Origin: Thermoplasmata archaeon
Lineage (GTDB): Archaea; Thermoplasmatota; Thermoplasmata; Thermoplasmatales; Thermoplasmataceae
Direction: 5' to 3'
Length of the DNA: 6,925 nt
Assembly (NCBI GenBank): GCA_021826835.1
Contig: JAKAYH010000122.1
Coordinates: 1-6,925, forward strand
Shown: positions 1-5,024 of the stretch, piece by piece
Numbering within the stretch: position 1 is the stretch's first letter
Layout: each line of letters begins with the position of its first letter
Notes under the pieces: generated by a model
What the model was told of the DNA's origin: nothing
What the model saw: only the letters and a program-made list of their open reading frames with translations
Databases searched by the model: none
Program-made: the position numbers and the translations under genes

Positions 1-681
1 CACATCGAAATAGGAATACCACGCTGCCTTAAAGCATTCAAGACGATTGTCCTCATCTTTCCCCTGCAGATTATTGAATAATTTTTCTATTGCCTTAAGT
101 GCCATAATTATGGCTAATTCACTTTCTCTGTTCGAGAAGATTGTTTCTATTGCATGATCAAGTGATCGTATACCCGTTGACCTCCAGAGTTTATCTGGAG
201 TCTCCTTAGCAGCTGCCGGGTCAATAAATATTATTGAAGGAGTAATTGCTTTGTCTCTCACACCATTCTTAACCGAATCGAAAGTGTAACCAGCTATATG
301 GGAGAATTCTGATGCCGAGAGTGTGGTGGGTACAACAAGATGAGGTATATTTACATCATAATAATGCCTCAGCATTTTTGATGAATCTATAACGCTTCCT
401 CCACCAATTGATAGTAGTATATCGCAGTTGTTGTTTCTATATGCCTCAATTCCATGTTCAATTTCTTCAATGGGAGAATGTTGCGTAATATCTGAGAATA
501 CAACATAGTCAATACCCAGAGAATTGATAATTGATGCAAAAAACTTTGACTTTGATACAGAACTACCAGTTACAATGAGAGCTTTTTTCTTGTTGAGTCT
601 TTCTATTTGACTGTTTATGGATGATACCGAGTTTTTTCCGTATATTACCTTGTCAATTGGCAAATAATTGAATTCAATCAT
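1..681 (-). CDS. Maleylacetate reductase / iron-containing alcohol dehydrogenase family protein (3' end outside window)
   Basis: Partial: 227 N-terminal residues, C-terminus beyond the left edge. The start ATG (681-679) overlaps the hmgA stop as ATGA, so it is the last visible gene of the operon and probably translationally coupled. Seen: an N-terminal nucleotide-binding half with the family motif GGGSVIDSSK (residues 93-102), then VPTTLSASE (117-125), a VRDKAITPSIIFIDP stretch (141-155) like the GRD...P..VIYDP of maleylacetate reductases, and GIRSLDHAIE (170-179). In metal-dependent members the last motif reads GxDALxHAxE; here Arg172 replaces the first metal-binding Asp, while His176 is kept. 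Maleylacetate reductases also lack that Asp (Asn there) and work without metal. Known for the family: NAD(P)H-dependent reduction of the double bond of maleylacetate. Inference from position: it may reduce maleylacetoacetate, the HmgA product. It could instead be an alcohol dehydrogenase-like enzyme of unrelated substrate. Family assignment is firm; substrate is not. Confidence 0.85.
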   Translation of the reverse strand, partial: MIEFNYLPIDKVIYGKNSVSSINSQIERLNKKKALIVTGSSVSKSKFFASIINSLGIDYVVFSDITQHSPIEEIEHGIEAYRNNNCDILLSIGGGSVIDSSKMLRHYYDVNIPHLVVPTTLSASEFSHIAGYTFDSVKNGVRDKAITPSIIFIDPAAAKETPDKLWRSTGIRSLDHAIETIFSNRESELAIIMALKAIEKLFNNLQGKDEDNRLECFKAAWYSYFDV

Positions 682-1820
682 TTTTTGAACCATGATTCCA
701 TATAATGCGGGTCTTCAAACTCTTTGCCGGTCTTTGTAAGAACAAGGGGCTCGTAAGATTCAACCATAACTGCAACCTCGTCAGTTCCCTCCTTTCCTAT
801 GGCTGCCTCAACTGTTCCAGGTTGTGGTCCATGAATAATACCTCTCACGTGCACCGTAACTGAACCTTCTTCTATGCCCTTTCTACTCATGAAATTTCCT
901 GAAGAATAAAAGAGGACTTCATCCACATCTATGTTGTTATGGTAATAAGAAATGGGGATACTCCTTGGATGAAAGTCAAATTTTCTAGGAAGGAAAGTTC
1001 CAACCATAAATCCTTTTCCAGAAAAAGTCTCATGTATTGGTGGTGGCATATGCAGTTTACCAACAATGGGGGCCATATTGTCAACATTAATCGCAAATGG
1101 ATAAAGATAGCCATCCCATCCTACAACATCCAGAATTGATTTGTCTCTCTCCTCAACCATATAGTAGTTGTCATATTCCACGTAGACATTAAAATTCTGG
1201 TCTTTCTTTGAAGGCTCCTTAAGTTCCGGGAATCTAATATCTCTACTATAATAAGGTGTACCTTCTTTCAATTGACCATACTTATTAAGATATCTTGAAG
1301 GTAAATCCATGTGCTCTCTTGATTCTATGATGAAAAAGTAACTTTCACTTGTGCTCAGACGGAATGTGGTACCTCTTGGGACAAAGACATAATCACCTTT
1401 GTGATAATTCAGGTCCCCCTGTGGAGATGACAGCGTTCCACTCCCTTTCTGAACAAACAGGAGGATATCGGCATATGAATTTCGATAGAAATCATTTGAG
1501 CTCTCTGTGATATTGGCAATGCCTATCCTAAGCTTTGAATTTGATAGAATGAACTTTCTTGAATCGATAAATGTGCCATCAGTCTTTATTTTACCTGCTT
1601 TAATATGCAGATGCTTTGTAACCTCTTCAGGTGTTTCATCTTTTTGTTTCTCTCTTTTAGTAAGAGATTTAACCCTCGTTGGTTCGTTCAGATGATACAA
1701 TAGAGAATATGCACCGTCGAAACTATCTTCACCGAATAATTCCTCTTTTAAAATTTCATCTTTGTGGTCATATGTGTGTCTGCTCTCTGTTAATTTTCCC
1801 TGTTTTACGTAAAATACCAT
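678..1820 (-). CDS. hmgA: Homogentisate 1,2-dioxygenase
   Basis: Opens the ring of homogentisate with O2 to give 4-maleylacetoacetate; cytosolic non-haem Fe(II) cupin enzyme of tyrosine/phenylalanine breakdown. The protein is 380 aa from the ATG at 1820, the size of short prokaryotic members (human about 445). Numbering here counts the upstream in-frame TTG (1823) as 1; subtract one for the ATG start. Seen: family-typical N-terminus ending SRHTYD, a first cupin around 115-165, LDVVGWDGYLYPF (231-243) matching the DVVGW block of human HGD, His258 in the region of the human catalytic His, and probable iron ligands His295 (YYHNN), Glu302 (DVDEV) and His331 (IIHGPQPG). The ATG is preferred over TTG because GGTGAT sits three bases before the TTG and the family sequence begins about there. 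The ATG overlaps the upstream hydrolase stop by one base (TGATG); the downstream reductase overlaps by four. Confidence 0.95.
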   Translation of the reverse strand: MVFYVKQGKLTESRHTYDHKDEILKEELFGEDSFDGAYSLLYHLNEPTRVKSLTKREKQKDETPEEVTKHLHIKAGKIKTDGTFIDSRKFILSNSKLRIGIANITESSNDFYRNSYADILLFVQKGSGTLSSPQGDLNYHKGDYVFVPRGTTFRLSTSESYFFIIESREHMDLPSRYLNKYGQLKEGTPYYSRDIRFPELKEPSKKDQNFNVYVEYDNYYMVEERDKSILDVVGWDGYLYPFAINVDNMAPIVGKLHMPPPIHETFSGKGFMVGTFLPRKFDFHPRSIPISYYHNNIDVDEVLFYSSGNFMSRKGIEEGSVTVHVRGIIHGPQPGTVEAAIGKEGTDEVAVMVESYEPLVLTKTGKEFEDPHYMESWFKK

Positions 1821-2713
1821 CAAATCACCTTATTCAACAGATTTCCAAGAATTGGGGACTGCATTAAAACTTCATCGTTTTTCTGAATCCATCTTGGTTT
1901 TTCTTGAGGCATTTCTGTTATGCATCCACCTGGCATTGTCCCTGTCATTATTATATCTCCCGCTTTTAATTGGGATGACATCGACGCATAACTTATCAAC
2001 TTCTCAATTGGCCAGTAGATTCTCTTAAGATTTGATTCCCCAAAGAGATGGCCGTTAATTTGGGTCTCTACAGGTATGTCAAATTTCCCATTTTTTAAGA
2101 GCGGTTTAAGGTCTTTGAGTGTAACGATACAATCCCCTATTCCCGTTGCGAAATCTTTTGACTTTGACGGCCCAAGGCCGATCTTCATCTCTCTGCGTTG
2201 AAGATCTCTTGCGCTCCAGTCATTCATCAATACCATGCCAAATATGTGATTGAATGCTTCTTCCTCAGAAATATCCTTTCCGCTCTGTCCAATTATAATC
2301 CCTATCTCCATTTCAAAATCAAGTTCTTCTGTGAAATTAGGATATTTAAATGAACCGCCGTGTGGTATAAGACCACTGTTGGATGTAAAATAATAAGCTG
2401 GAATTTTATACCATTCAGGTTCCATGTCAAGACCTCTTCTTCTTCTGGAATTTTTCACATGATCTTCAAAGGCATAGAAATCTCTTATCTGACCAGGGTA
2501 TTTTAACGGGGACAGGTAAGAATCAATTTTTGAGATGATATATGTATCCTTAAAAGAGGAATCTGCAGGTTCATTTTCAGTAAAAGCTTTAAAGAAATCC
2601 CTCTCTAGATGTTCCTCAGAGATATCAAAGATCATTGTGGCATCATAGGCTTTGGTTCCTTTGAAAATAACAGTTACTATCCGCTCATTGGAGATAATTC
2701 TTCCTATTCTCAT
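1820..2713 (-). CDS. Fumarylacetoacetate hydrolase family protein
   Basis: Expected to cleave the C-C bond of fumarylacetoacetate (or a close analogue) to acetoacetate plus a C4 dicarboxylate, the last step of homogentisate breakdown. At 297 aa it is much shorter than animal FAH (about 419) but normal for the prokaryotic family. Catalytic residues align with mouse FAH: Asp78 and His85 (DFYAFEDH; mouse D126/H133, same spacing), Glu134 and Glu136 (LDFEMEIG; E199/E201), Asp165, Arg169 and Gln172 (MNDWSARDLQ; D233/R237/Q240), Lys186 probably for K253, and TGT (257-259) near the substrate loop. All metal ligands are present, so it should be active. ATG at 2713 lies 11 bases after the hppD stop; GCTGAT before it is a weak Shine-Dalgarno match. 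Its stop overlaps the hmgA ATG. Sequence alone does not decide between fumaryl-, maleyl- and succinyl-acetoacetate; related acylpyruvase and oxaloacetate decarboxylase folds are less likely given the neighbours. Confidence 0.92.
   Translation of the reverse strand: MRIGRIISNERIVTVIFKGTKAYDATMIFDISEEHLERDFFKAFTENEPADSSFKDTYIISKIDSYLSPLKYPGQIRDFYAFEDHVKNSRRRRGLDMEPEWYKIPAYYFTSNSGLIPHGGSFKYPNFTEELDFEMEIGIIIGQSGKDISEEEAFNHIFGMVLMNDWSARDLQRREMKIGLGPSKSKDFATGIGDCIVTLKDLKPLLKNGKFDIPVETQINGHLFGESNLKRIYWPIEKLISYASMSSQLKAGDIIMTGTMPGGCITEMPQEKPRWIQKNDEVLMQSPILGNLLNKVI
1824..1831 (-). promoter_or_regulatory. Shine-Dalgarno site of hmgA
   Basis: The minus strand reads AAGGTGAT, complementary to the archaeal 16S rRNA 3' end (AUCACCUC). 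It lies inside the last codons of the upstream hydrolase gene and three bases before a TTG that is followed directly by ATG. Its spacing favours the ATG at 1820 as the hmgA start. Confidence 0.7.
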
Positions 2714-2724
2714 ATGGTATCAGC

Positions 2725-3828
2725 TTAAAGGTTTCCTCTCTTAGCCTGTTCTAATTCAATGGACTGGAAGAGTGATTTAAAGTTTCCCTTTCCAAAGGAT
2801 GTTGCACCCCTCCTTTGTATTACCTCATAGAATACTGTTGGTCTGTCTCCTACAGGCTTTGTGAATATCTGCAGTAGATACCCGTCATCATCTCTATCCA
2901 CCAAAATGTCAAGTGCTTGGAGCTTGTCAATATCCTCCTTTATCTTTCCTACTCTGTCCTCTAACGTGTCGTAATATACCTTTGGAGTTGAGAGAAATTC
3001 AATGCCTCTGGATTTCATATCAGAAACTGTTTTAATTATATCATCAGTTTCCATTGCAATATGCTGAACTCCTGGTGAATTGTAGTAGTCAATATATTCC
3101 TGAATTTGTGATTTCTTCAGACCGAGAGCCGGTTCGTTTATAGGAAATATTATTTTTCTGTTATTGTAATGGACGACCTTTGACCTGAGGGCAGAATATT
3201 CAGTGCTTATATCCTTATCATCGAAACTTATTAGCTGGTCGAATCCAAAACCTTTGGTATAATATTCAACCCACTGATCCATCTTCTTATCCTCTACATT
3301 CCCAACTATATGATCTATTTTCTTTATACCTGTAGGTTTGATGTCCGGTGATTCCACTTCTTTGAATCCTGGGGGGAGTTCATCCTCATATTCGCCATAA
3401 TCATTTAGAGAATGAAGTGTTTCTCCAAAAGAATTGGATATTGCACTATAAAGAGTTCCATTATCTGTTTTGATCTTTTTCACAGGGCCATGTTTGACAA
3501 CGCCTCTTCTATCAATTTCGGCGATGGTATCGTTAATATCCGGGACTGTCATGGATATATCTCTAACGCCATCTCCGTGAATTCTTGTATGCTCTGTAAT
3601 AGGGGAAGATGGAAATAATGTGTTGGTAAAAATGAACTTTATATCGCCCTGTTTTAAAAGATAAGATACCCTATCCCTGACACCAGTTTCTGGTCCTGAA
3701 TAACCTACCAATTTAAATCCCAAACCATATTGGTGGAAATAACTCCATTCCTTGGCTGATCCTACATAAAATTCAAGTGTATCTACAGAGTCTAAAATCT
3801 TTTCTGATACCATAGAATAAAATTCCAT
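2725..3828 (-). CDS. hppD: 4-hydroxyphenylpyruvate dioxygenase
   Basis: Converts 4-hydroxyphenylpyruvate plus O2 to homogentisate and CO2, feeding the hmgA product downstream. 367 aa, two vicinal-oxygen-chelate domains (about 12-140 and 168-340). Iron ligands are His173 (KKIDHIVGN), His256 (GVQHIAMET) and Glu335 (TVFYEVIQR); the His-His spacing of 83 equals that of the human enzyme. Further signature blocks are PINEPALGLKKSQIQEY (229-245), GYLLQIFTKP (316-325) and FGKGNFKSLF (345-354), the C-terminal helix that closes the active site. First gene of the operon. Two start choices exist: ATG at 3828 (used here), with TATA-like AATTTTTAGA about 23 bases upstream, or ATG at 3813, with TTATTATA about 23 bases upstream; in the latter case the protein starts MVSEKILDS. 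The related hydroxymandelate synthase uses the same fold, but homogentisate-pathway neighbours make dioxygenase the better call. Confidence 0.96.
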   Translation of the reverse strand: MEFYSMVSEKILDSVDTLEFYVGSAKEWSYFHQYGLGFKLVGYSGPETGVRDRVSYLLKQGDIKFIFTNTLFPSSPITEHTRIHGDGVRDISMTVPDINDTIAEIDRRGVVKHGPVKKIKTDNGTLYSAISNSFGETLHSLNDYGEYEDELPPGFKEVESPDIKPTGIKKIDHIVGNVEDKKMDQWVEYYTKGFGFDQLISFDDKDISTEYSALRSKVVHYNNRKIIFPINEPALGLKKSQIQEYIDYYNSPGVQHIAMETDDIIKTVSDMKSRGIEFLSTPKVYYDTLEDRVGKIKEDIDKLQALDILVDRDDDGYLLQIFTKPVGDRPTVFYEVIQRRGATSFGKGNFKSLFQSIELEQAKRGNL

Positions 3829-3845
3829 GGACTATAATAAGTTTA

Positions 3846-3855
3846 TCTAAAAATT
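3846..3855 (-). promoter_or_regulatory. Candidate TATA box for the hppD operon
   Basis: The minus strand reads AATTTTTAGA, centred about 23 bases before the ATG at 3828, which would give a leaderless or nearly leaderless transcript. A competing TTATTATA at 3833-3840 is similarly spaced from the alternative ATG at 3813, so promoter and start choice are linked. Confidence 0.4.
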
Positions 3856-3874
3856 GGTTCTCTACCGTGCTACA

Positions 3875-3907
3875 GAGTGTCTCGGTATGCATATGGCATT
3901 GACACTC
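3875..3907. promoter_or_regulatory. Inverted repeat upstream of hppD, possible operator
   Basis: GAGTGTC (3875-3881) and GACACTC (3901-3907) are perfect 7-base inverted arms separated by 19 bases. The spacer contains a smaller ATGC/GCAT dyad. The repeat lies about 20 bases upstream of the candidate hppD TATA box, where an archaeal regulator could bind. No regulator gene is in the window. Confidence 0.4.
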
Positions 3908-3990
3908 AAAATATTAATACAAATATAGAGCATGATATATAGAGATTTTAAATAAAATATCACATCTTCTTCCGTACGGCCAGTAATAGT

Positions 3991-4010
3991 TAGAATGCCA
4001 TAGAATGTCA
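3991..4010. repeat. 10-base tandem direct repeat, candidate regulator site
   Basis: TAGAATGCCA (3991-4000) is followed at once by TAGAATGTCA (4001-4010), two copies differing at one base. The one-helical-turn period places both copies on the same DNA face. The second copy ends just before the promoter element of the downstream membrane gene, a typical archaeal activator position. Confidence 0.5.
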
Positions 4011-4025
4011 CGAAATATTTATATT
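4011..4025 (+). promoter_or_regulatory. BRE/TATA promoter of the membrane-protein gene pair
   Basis: CGAAAT (BRE-like) followed by TTTATATT (4018-4025). The TATA centre lies about 26 bases before 4047, so transcription should start at or next to the TTG start codon and give a leaderless message. This is the clearest promoter in the window. Confidence 0.65.
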
Positions 4026-4046
4026 ATGCATTGAGAATTCCTGATT

Positions 4047-4742
4047 TTGAAAATCAAAACTGTTAATTTAAAACTCGCTTTGTTAATACTCATTGGGGTG
4101 TTTTTAATCATCGGGATACATTTCATAATTTCCAATAGTGATTCTTCATTTGAACAAGGACATAACTTTGTTACTCAGGAAAAATATGCAAAGTTTTGTG
4201 TTTCCAATAACAAATTGACGGAAATATACAAAAATACTGGTTTGAATTTTAAAAAAGAACATCGTCTAGAGCCCAAATTTTTCGGTCAATTTAAACAGAA
4301 TGAATTTGCCAGCAATCACACTTTAGACAACTCAACAAATGGAAACTTATTGCGATGGACTTTTGAGAAGGATTCAGCTGGAGGTTTTATAGTTTCACTT
4401 TCAGATAAGAGTACTAATAAAATAGTTATTACATTTGCCTTATTGGGCATATTAGGTACCTTCTCAATAGAAACTCTTCTTCCAGATAAGGGCCCTGAAA
4501 CTATTGCATTTTTAAAAAATCCACATAGTTTGAAAAACGATCTAAAGGGGGTTTTTAGTGCACTTGTTATAATTGCAATGATTATGGCGTTTCTAAATTT
4601 AGTGGGTTCATACAATGGTATCTTTATAGGTTATCAAATCTACAATGTTAATATGAACGGGGTTTCAGTGAGTTTCGTATCTCCATTAATAAATACAAAC
4701 CCTGCACCAGGGTTCATTCCATTTGGGAGAGGGGAAATCTGA
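4047..4742 (+). CDS. Hypothetical membrane protein, three predicted transmembrane segments
   Basis: Not recognised as a known family. 231 aa beginning with TTG; an in-frame TGA 15 bases upstream and the TATA box 26 bases upstream support this start as leaderless. Seen: a hydrophobic segment at 9-28 (signal anchor or TM1), a polar 95-residue region (30-124) rich in Asn, Lys and Ser with a single Cys51, TM2 at about 126-145 (IVITFALLGILGTFS...), a short charged loop, TM3 at about 168-188, and a Gly/Pro/Asn-rich tail (190-231). If the N-terminus is cytoplasmic, the polar region and tail face outside. The gene is followed after nine bases by a second small membrane protein sharing the IVIT...GTFS segment, so the two are probably co-transcribed and may act together. 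It is divergent from the aromatic operon. No catalytic motif is visible; function unknown. Confidence 0.75.
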   Translation: MKIKTVNLKLALLILIGVFLIIGIHFIISNSDSSFEQGHNFVTQEKYAKFCVSNNKLTEIYKNTGLNFKKEHRLEPKFFGQFKQNEFASNHTLDNSTNGNLLRWTFEKDSAGGFIVSLSDKSTNKIVITFALLGILGTFSIETLLPDKGPETIAFLKNPHSLKNDLKGVFSALVIIAMIMAFLNLVGSYNGIFIGYQIYNVNMNGVSVSFVSPLINTNPAPGFIPFGRGEI

Positions 4743-4751
4743 GGTTAGAAC

Positions 4752-5024
4752 ATGGAGAGCTTCAGCAAATGGATCAAGAACAGTAAACTAACAATAGAAT
4801 TTATGAAAAAAAAATTCTATTTTATTATATTGATAAACGTATTAATGTGGGTAGGCGCGGTATACTGTATATACTACACATTAACCGGTGCAATGTCATC
4901 TTTTGAAGAATATATTGTTATTACACTAATCCCCATTTTTGGCACATTCAGTTCAAGGTCAAAGAAAAAGAAACCTCAACCAAATAAAGGCGCTCACACC
5001 ACAAAACAAATTGTTAAAAAATGA
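4752..5024 (+). CDS. Hypothetical small membrane protein with lysine-rich tail
   Basis: Not recognised. 90 aa. Seen: a basic N-terminus (KWIKNSK, later MKKK 18-21), TM1 at about 22-44, a short loop, TM2 at about 53-68 ending IFGTFS, then a strongly basic tail with SRSKKKK (68-74) and a final KK. The positive tail predicts a cytoplasmic C-terminus, so both ends are inside and only a few residues outside. The ATG is preceded by GAGGT (4741-4745), which overlaps the stop codon of the upstream gene, a good Shine-Dalgarno site for a second operon gene. The segment IVITLIPIFGTFS (55-67) resembles residues 126-140 of the upstream protein, and TM1 is loosely alike, so this may be a shortened paralogue lacking the long polar domain. 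Function unknown. Confidence 0.7.
   Translation: MESFSKWIKNSKLTIEFMKKKFYFIILINVLMWVGAVYCIYYTLTGAMSSFEEYIVITLIPIFGTFSSRSKKKKPQPNKGAHTTKQIVKK

What the first reader, a model, noticed from the sequence alone, without database searches (positions are those of the whole stretch)
1..3828. Homogentisate operon with a maleylacetate-reductase relative instead of an isomerase: possible reductive branch
Seen: hppD, FAH-family gene, hmgA and an Fe-ADH/maleylacetate reductase-family gene sit in one overlapping operon, with no maleylacetoacetate isomerase. Known: the classical isomerase (MaiA/GSTZ) needs glutathione, which most archaea lack; maleylacetate reductases reduce the C=C of an HOOC-CH=CH-CO- unit; maleylacetoacetate has the same unit; FAH is reported to accept succinylacetoacetate. 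Inference: HmgA product is reduced to succinylacetoacetate, then hydrolysed to succinate and acetoacetate. Visible gene order fits, and I do not know this route as described.
Basis: partly seen in the sequence, partly recalled or inferred. Interest (0 to 1): 0.72.

Follow-up and report, generated by a model that had tools for sequence, protein, structure and literature searches.

The report
Possible reductive tyrosine breakdown in archaea
In many archaea of one class the genes that break down the amino acid tyrosine travel with a reductase gene while the usual isomerase is not found, which suggests an alternative, still untested, way of finishing the pathway.

Summary
In detail: HPPD, an FAH-family hydrolase, homogentisate dioxygenase (HGD) and an iron-ADH-family gene (cut by the window edge; 344 aa in a near-identical contig). 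In 400 Thermoplasmata genomes HGD occurs in 74 and the reductase (E<=1e-30) in 38, all among those 74. In 35 of 38 it directly follows HGD; in the other three both lie at contig edges. HGD and reductase trees share 23 of 26 splits. MaiA and mycothiol-type isomerases were found in 0 of 74; intradiol dioxygenase, the usual source of maleylacetate, in 0 of 39 reductase-bearing genomes. The reductase has Arg for the ADH metal-ligand Asp, as reported for part of the MAR subfamily, but lacks the classical MAR motif and its essential Lys. Best explanation: it reduces the C=C of maleylacetoacetate and FAH cleaves the succinylacetoacetate formed. Main evidence against: 21 of 59 genomes with a close HGD have neither reductase nor known isomerase, so it is not obligatory; and classical MARs group with ADHs, not with it. 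No activity was tested. Partly supported; probably a new variant of a known pathway.

The parts
2725..3828 (-). 4-hydroxyphenylpyruvate dioxygenase (HPPD), 367 aa, first gene of the operon
   Evidence: TIGR01263 390 bits, cut-off 277; PDB HPPD 1t47 E=3.5e-101
1820..2713 (-). FAH-family hydrolase, 297 aa
   Evidence: PF01557 168.6 bits; TIGR01266 fumarylacetoacetase 84.1 bits, below cut-off 375.3; D78, H85, E134, E136, D165, R169, K186, T259, E267 shared with Priestia FahA
678..1823 (-). homogentisate 1,2-dioxygenase, divergent short form, 381 aa
   Evidence: PF20510 over cut-off; TIGR01015 49.9 bits, below cut-off; human HGD 1ey2 E=5.8e-8; 41% identical to HGD of Priestia plasmids, one of which was read and has hppD and fahA beside it
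1..693 (-). 5' part (231 of about 344 codons) of the Fe-ADH-family (MAR-like) reductase gene; the rest lies left of the window
   Evidence: PF00465 114.4 bits; full gene L001:2389-3423; PDB top hits 'MAR1' 9ph0 E=3.2e-37 and maleylacetate reductase 3w5s E=2.3e-27
678..693 (-). 16-base overlap of the HGD end with the reductase start
   Evidence: coordinates; in 36 of 39 reductase places in relatives the gap between HGD and reductase matches is -13 to +31 bases

Best explanation
The operon is a tyrosine/4-hydroxyphenylpyruvate catabolic operon running through homogentisate. Shown by sequence: the gene set, its conservation, and that the known isomerase families were not found. Inferred: HGD opens homogentisate to maleylacetoacetate; the last gene product, an Fe-ADH-fold enzyme without the metal-ligand Asp, uses NAD(P)H to reduce the C=C of its HOOC-CH=CH-CO unit; the resulting succinylacetoacetate is cut by the FAH-family enzyme into succinate and acetoacetate. 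Where the reductase is missing, the hydrolase presumably works on maleylacetoacetate directly or on fumarylacetoacetate formed without an enzyme or by an unknown one; the reductase is therefore a branch, not an essential step of every such pathway.
For: (1) 38 of 400 Thermoplasmata genomes have the reductase at E<=1e-30, all among the 74 with HGD (the two draws show the same handles where listed); Fisher p about 7e-33, not corrected for kinship. (2) 36 of 39 reductase places, in 35 of 38 genomes, lie directly behind HGD on the same strand, gaps -13 to +31; in G004, G293 and G364 the genes are at the edges of different contigs, and in G004 a 64-residue start of the reductase does stand beside HGD. 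(3) Reductase and HGD trees of 29 of the 38 genomes share 23 of 26 splits; distances correlate at rho 0.87, reached in 0 of 1000 permutations. (4) MaiA (TIGR01262) over cut-off in 0 of 11 and, at E<=0.01, in 0 of 74 genomes; PF11716 in 0 of 74; GST_N_3 in 10 of 74, all among the 15 distant-HGD genomes. (5) Intradiol dioxygenase PF00775 in 0 of 39 reductase-bearing genomes. (6) The first four PDB sequence matches are 9ph0 'MAR1', 3w5s, 3jzd and 3hl0, with a methanol dehydrogenase close behind the last (2.9e-23 against 1.4e-23). The metal-ligand Asp is Arg176 in 33 of 34 aligned reductases; K142, R146, H180, H240 and H254 are also kept in 33 of 34. PMC5125639 (passages) says MARs work without metal and have Asn or Arg at the ligand site. 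H180 corresponds by motif to the essential His172 of PcpE (PMC5741723, passages; PcpE itself was not aligned, plasmid MARs were). (7) Succinylacetoacetate is mentioned as arising from fumarylacetoacetate in fahA mutants (PMC4374905, passage), so the product is chemically plausible.
Against: 21 of 59 close-HGD genomes have no reductase, nor MaiA or PF11716; 19 of these 21 show intact HPPD, FAH and HGD, among them G045, G063 and G114 on contigs of 1.83-1.94 Mb; in G164 FAH is split into two frames and G389 is cut before FAH. So the pathway can evidently run without either enzyme. PcpE's essential Lys238 and the LHHKLCHTLGG signature are absent, and in the tree four plasmid MARs join FucO and YiaY (100/97) apart from the Arg-motif proteins, so a special kinship with classical MARs is not supported there. 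Of four plasmid contexts of Arg-motif relatives all have acyl-CoA-type genes and none an HGD; one has a muconate-cycloisomerase-family gene about 6 kb away. The fold does not separate MARs from alcohol dehydrogenases; VIA-align puts several ADHs level or slightly ahead. Co-adaptation of FAH is inconclusive. In one Thermoplasmatales co-culture tyrosine loss went with a rise of 4-hydroxyphenylacetate (PMC8975820, passage), a different route.
Confidence: 0.5

Rival explanations
1. The FAH-family enzyme hydrolyses maleylacetoacetate directly (to maleate and acetoacetate), or works on fumarylacetoacetate formed by spontaneous, acid- or thiol-driven isomerisation or by an unknown isomerase; the reductase has an accessory or protective role, for example removing excess reactive intermediate.
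For: 21 of 59 close-HGD genomes have HGD but no reductase and no known isomerase; one Priestia plasmid cluster read has hppD, fahA and HGD with neither annotated isomerase nor reductase in the 12 kb shown (an unnamed 339-aa protein there was not examined). Non-enzymatic and glutathione-independent isomerisation are recalled from older literature, not seen in a call.
Against: Does not explain why the reductase has stayed adjacent to HGD and co-inherited with it with its active site conserved in 33 of 34.
Confidence: 0.25
2. The protein reduces a carbonyl (for example acetoacetate, 4-hydroxyphenylpyruvate or a related keto acid) like ordinary Fe-ADHs.
For: Same fold; lactaldehyde, propanediol and methanol dehydrogenases score level with MARs in structure.
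Against: The metal-ligand Asp is replaced by Arg in 33 of 34 aligned members (the exception is the degenerate G184 copy), and loss of the ligand goes with metal-free C=C reduction in the MAR subfamily (PMC5125639, passages).
Confidence: 0.15
3. The protein is the missing isomerase: it acts redox-neutrally (reversible hydride transfer) or by acid/base catalysis to turn the maleyl into the fumaryl isomer.
For: Its place in the operon and the lack of MaiA and PF11716.
Against: I know of no isomerase in the Fe-ADH family (recalled); the GGGS motif is conserved.
Confidence: 0.1

Closest known systems
Maleylacetate reductase (MAR, cd08177; PcpE, GraC, TfdF)
   Same: Fe-ADH fold; loss of the metal-ligand Asp; counterpart of the catalytic His (PcpE His172); basic residues at several other substrate-site positions; would reduce the same HOOC-CH=CH-CO unit
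   Different: Arg instead of the Asn of classical members; LHHKLCHTLGG signature and essential Lys238 missing; separate in the tree; no intradiol dioxygenase in 39 of 39 genomes; lies in a homogentisate operon
PDB 9ph0 'MAR1' (name as deposited; no paper found)
   Same: Best PDB sequence match; shares the STG(M/I)R..DHA(V/I)E and IPHG motifs
   Different: 407 aa; organism, substrate and pathway not learned here
Classical homogentisate pathway (HPPD-HGD-MaiA-FAH)
   Same: HPPD, HGD and FAH-family genes in one operon
   Different: No MaiA found; a reductase gene behind HGD in 35 of 74 HGD-bearing Thermoplasmata genomes (three more at contig edges); would yield succinate instead of fumarate
FUM7 (MAR homologue of fumonisin biosynthesis)
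   Same: MAR-subfamily protein thought to reduce an alkene (PMC5125639, passage)
   Different: Fungal secondary metabolism; not aligned here

Membership tests
Fe-ADH (group III) superfamily | PF00465 above cut-off and the family's two-domain fold | tested here: met
   114.4 bits vs 31.3; model pLDDT 94.4, Foldseek 3hl0 E=2.3e-24, TM 0.87 by query length
Metal-dependent alcohol dehydrogenase of this superfamily | Metal-ligand Asp (GxDALTHA in FucO/YiaY) conserved | tested here: not met
   Arg176 in 33 of 34 archaeal and 28 of 28 further relatives aligned; Asp in the FucO and YiaY rows
Maleylacetate reductase (classical) | Signature LHHKLCHTLGG with essential Lys238 | tested here: not met
   Present (HHKLCHxLGG) in 4 of 4 plasmid MARs, absent in the archaeal rows; Lys238 essential in PcpE (PMC5741723, passages)
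Maleylacetate reductase (classical) | Essential His172 | tested here: met
   H180 at the same motif position, 33 of 34
Maleylacetate reductase (MAR subfamily) | Metal-ligand Asp replaced by Asn or Arg | tested here: met
   Arg176; definition from PMC5125639 passages
Maleylacetate reductase (classical) | Groups with MARs in a tree | tested here: not met
   Four plasmid MARs form one clade, joined to FucO/YiaY (100/97), apart from the archaeal clade; 34 rows, no PDB sequences or fungal MARs in it
Maleylacetate reductase | NAD(P)H-dependent reduction of maleylacetate | not testable with these tools
   needs an enzyme assay
Fumarylacetoacetase | Catalytic residues of FAH | tested here: met
   Aligned with Priestia FahA; residue roles recalled from mouse FAH. 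The Gln after ARD is Trp in 9 of 48 relatives
Fumarylacetoacetase | TIGR01266 over curated cut-off | tested here: not met
   84.1 vs 375.3 bits
Homogentisate 1,2-dioxygenase | TIGR01015 over curated cut-off | tested here: not met
   49.9 vs 510.75 bits
Homogentisate 1,2-dioxygenase | Iron ligands His, Glu, His | tested here: met
   Alignment to human 1ey2, with a one-residue gap between the first His and Glu; ligand identity recalled
Classical homogentisate pathway | MaiA gene in the genome | tested here: not met
   0 of 74 HGD-bearing Thermoplasmata genomes, most of them drafts; the window's own genome not held

The most novel reading that the evidence does not exclude
A reductive homogentisate pathway: a dedicated, metal-free maleylacetoacetate reductase of a non-classical Fe-ADH clade, ancestral to the Thermoplasmata-type operon and lost several times, feeds succinylacetoacetate to a co-adapted FAH, giving succinate plus acetoacetate without glutathione.
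Probability: 0.42. Interest if true: 0.75.

Novelty: new variant of a known kind. Interest (0 to 1): 0.6.

Why it matters
How organisms without glutathione get past maleylacetoacetate is, to my knowledge, a gap in tyrosine breakdown. A dedicated reductase would be a new enzyme activity and a new end to a textbook pathway, would explain an operon gene now labelled only 'iron-containing alcohol dehydrogenase', and would make a useful step of a reaction that in tyrosinaemia leads to toxic succinylacetone. Homologues at 49-52% identity in named organisms (Cuniculiplasma sp. SKW3, Oxyplasma meridianum, Caldiplasma sukawensis; their position beside HGD was not checked by name) should make it testable.

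Tried and rejected
Classical MAR function (maleylacetate from hydroxyquinol) was set aside for these genomes because intradiol dioxygenase PF00775 was found in 0 of 39. A hidden MaiA was rejected at the sensitivity of TIGR01262 (in one search only 3 of 14 control genomes rang, 1 over the cut-off) and of the GST N-domain PF13417 (10 of 74, all among the 15 distant-HGD genomes); a mycothiol-type isomerase by PF11716, 0 of 74. Unknown isomerase families cannot be excluded.

Co-adaptation of FAH: 5 of 285 FAH columns (75, 107, 109, 183, 185) against 1 of 378 HGD columns separate reductase-bearing from reductase-free rows (26 vs 20 rows). Four of the five flank the conserved Y108 or K186 (catalytic roles recalled). 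But G383/G268 and G159/G121/G245 go the other way, and in a Pagel-type test of 31 preselected columns HGD control columns did as well as FAH columns. Inconclusive. FAH position 172 is Trp instead of Gln in 9 of 48 rows, all reductase-bearing but one lineage.

Fold comparison does not separate MARs from ADHs; 9ph0 is not among the 50 rows shown in either. Four plasmid contexts of Arg-motif relatives gave no HGD. Ten paper searches listed no paper whose title or abstract start describes a maleylacetoacetate reductase or this operon; I read passages of five papers (PMC5741723, PMC5125639, PMC8975820, PMC6669923, PMC4374905), none in full; subscription journals are mostly not held. The only paper holding both 'homogentisate' and 'Thermoplasmatales' is a lipid review (listing only). 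Rfam and tRNA scans of the window gave nothing; a promoter/terminator scan of 3700-4100 was at chance.

Errors of mine: the second HGD copy of G263 (L036) was labelled reductase-bearing although none lies beside it. One search repeats the column counts and the label count on the tree with the right label (4 changes on 46 rows; one search gave 6 on 61 rows); one search was not rerun. An earlier count gave 57/17 close/distant HGD; the right count is 59/15. One search crashed (strand error) and was redone. Rows used: 34 of 39 reductase places aligned (G231, G290, G355, G254 and a G010 fragment left out); 61 of 62 HGD rows; 46 (G184 and G395 dropped; distant HGDs not in the set); 48 FAH rows; 29 genomes in the tree comparison.
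Full report
What is there. The window carries, on the minus strand, HPPD (3828-2725), an FAH-family hydrolase (2713-1820), a divergent homogentisate 1,2-dioxygenase (1823-678) and the first 231 codons of an iron-ADH-family gene (693-1). HPPD passes its curated NCBIfam cut-off; HGD and FAH do not pass theirs, but HGD's iron-ligand positions align with human HGD (ligand identities recalled) and the hydrolase shares D78, H85, E134, E136, D165, R169, K186, T259 and E267 with an annotated Priestia FahA (catalytic roles recalled from mouse FAH). HGD is 99% identical to that of a Thermoplasmata MAG contig (L001) and 90% to that of E-plasma. The complete last gene in L001 encodes 344 aa.

Linkage. Of 11 loci found by HGD in genome contigs, 9 carry HPPD-FAH-HGD-reductase in this order (HPPD cut by the contig end in L001); L004 ends behind HGD and L011 has an aminotransferase instead. 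Of 400 Thermoplasmata genomes, 74 have an HGD relative at E<=1e-10 and 38 the reductase at E<=1e-30; all 38 lie within the 74 (the two draws show the same handles where listed). Among the 74, 59 have a close HGD (full-length copies 47% identity or more) and 15 a distant one (32-38%); the reductase is in 38 of 59 and 0 of 15. Of 39 reductase places, 36 (35 genomes) follow HGD directly on the same strand with gaps of -13 to +31 bases; in the three others (G004, G364, G293) HGD and reductase are at the edges of different contigs, and in G004 the first 64 residues of the reductase stand beside HGD. Trees of reductase and HGD from 29 genomes share 23 of 26 splits, and 19 of 20 well-supported reductase splits are in the HGD tree. 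The gene has therefore been inherited with HGD, and its absence in some clades is best read as loss (inference; 4 label changes on a 46-row HGD tree; 6 on a 61-row tree with one wrong label).

No isomerase found, no other MAR substrate source. MaiA (TIGR01262) over cut-off: 0 of 11 (two matches of 14 and 11 bits) and 0 of 74. PF11716 (mycothiol-type maleylpyruvate isomerase): 0 of 74. GST_N_3: 10 of 74, all in distant-HGD genomes. Intradiol dioxygenase PF00775: 0 of 39 reductase-bearing genomes, so maleylacetate, the normal MAR substrate, has no visible source. Some of the 14 named control genomes rang in each of these searches (5, 3, 4, 6 and 4; for MaiA only one passed the cut-off). Most genomes are drafts; G078, G121, G215 and G184 have the locus on contigs of 1.9-2.2 Mb.

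The reductase. Its best PDB matches are 'MAR1' 9ph0 (E=3.2e-37), 3w5s (maleylacetate reductase, 2.3e-27), 3jzd (deposited as an alcohol dehydrogenase, listed as HxqD of the MAR subfamily by PMC5125639; 1.7e-24) and 3hl0 (maleylacetate reductase, 1.4e-23), with a methanol dehydrogenase next at 2.9e-23. In 34 of 39 places aligned (with 28 further relatives) the metal-ligand Asp of ADHs is Arg176; K142, R146, R176, H180, H240 and H254 are each kept in 33 of 34 and D179 in 34 of 34. PMC5125639 (passages) states that MARs work without metal, that the Asp is replaced by Asn or Arg, and that the MAR homologue FUM7 likely reduces an alkene. PMC5741723 (passages) reports His172 and Lys238 of PcpE as essential and LHHKLCHTLGG as a signature: His172 has a counterpart (H180), Lys238 and the signature do not. 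In a 34-row tree the archaeal proteins form a clade with four unplaced relatives; four plasmid MARs join FucO and YiaY (100/97) apart from the Arg-motif proteins. So it shares with MARs the loss of the metal ligand, but it is not a classical MAR and that tree does not make it their closest kin. The AlphaFold model (57 sequences, pLDDT 94.4) matches MARs best by Foldseek, while VIA-align puts ADHs level or slightly ahead.

Evidence against. Twenty-one of 59 close-HGD genomes have no reductase. Nineteen of the 21 show intact HPPD, FAH and HGD, including G045, G063 and G114 on contigs of 1.83-1.94 Mb; in G164 FAH is split into two frames and in G389 the contig starts inside HGD. All 21 also lack the isomerase families searched. 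So the step can be done without this enzyme: by direct hydrolysis, spontaneous isomerisation or an unknown enzyme. In G184 the gene beside HGD is degenerate (K142, R146, R176, H180, H240 and H254 all changed), in line with ongoing loss or change of function. Arg-motif relatives on four bacterial plasmids lie among acyl-CoA-type genes, one with a muconate-cycloisomerase-family gene about 6 kb away, so the motif alone does not fix the substrate. A search for matching change in FAH gave suggestive columns but no better support than control columns in HGD.

Mechanism proposed. HGD makes maleylacetoacetate (established pathway knowledge). The reductase transfers hydride from NAD(P)H to the enone C=C, with the carboxylates held by basic residues such as K142, R146, R176 and H240 and no metal (inference). 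FAH hydrolyses succinylacetoacetate to succinate and acetoacetate (inference; that FAH accepts succinylacetoacetate is stated in the finding and recalled, not seen in a call; one search found no paper on it). Succinylacetoacetate is mentioned as derived from fumarylacetoacetate in fahA mutants (PMC4374905, passage), and PMC6669923 (passages) treats succinylacetone as a stable derivative of maleyl- and fumarylacetoacetate. Reduction of fumarylacetoacetate rather than maleylacetoacetate would fit the same data. A passage of PMC8975820 reports 4-hydroxyphenylacetate rising while tyrosine falls in another Thermoplasmatales co-culture, so the homogentisate route is not the only one in the order.

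Novelty. Ten full-text searches listed no paper that, by title or abstract start, describes a maleylacetoacetate reductase or this archaeal operon; the library holds only openly licensed papers. I rate it a new variant of a known pathway, if the activity is confirmed.

Noticed in passing
L110:4956-5993 (G184): Reductase gene beside HGD still open (345 aa) but with K142, R146, R176, H180, H240 and H254 all changed; a protein losing or changing its function in place.
   Followed up: partly
L081:7254-7940, L097:2907-3575: In two distant-HGD Thermoplasmata genomes a 222-228 aa gene lies between HGD and FAH; the L081 protein has no Pfam match; both carry a C-terminal CPLC motif. Could be an unknown enzyme of the pathway.
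   Followed up: partly
L011:11193-12350, L083:7243-8415, L100:4762-5934: In one reductase-free clade an aminotransferase class I/II gene follows HGD, possibly the tyrosine aminotransferase.
   Followed up: partly
window:5123-5833: Chlorite-dismutase-family gene (PF06778, perhaps coproheme decarboxylase) upstream of a ThiI-family gene on the same strand.
   Followed up: no
window:4047-4742 and 4752-5024: Two small ORFs (231 and 90 aa) that look like membrane proteins; the first has no Pfam match; L003 has small ORFs (273 and 92 aa) at the matching place.
   Followed up: no
L036 (G263:C54): A second HGD copy in G263 without a reductase beside it; may be real or a mixed MAG.
   Followed up: partly
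L116:1-5933: Priestia megaterium plasmid with hppD, an unnamed 339-aa gene, fahA, an aminotransferase and an HGD 41% identical to the archaeal one, without annotated maiA or reductase in the 12 kb shown: the same apparent isomerase gap in a bacterium.
   Followed up: partly
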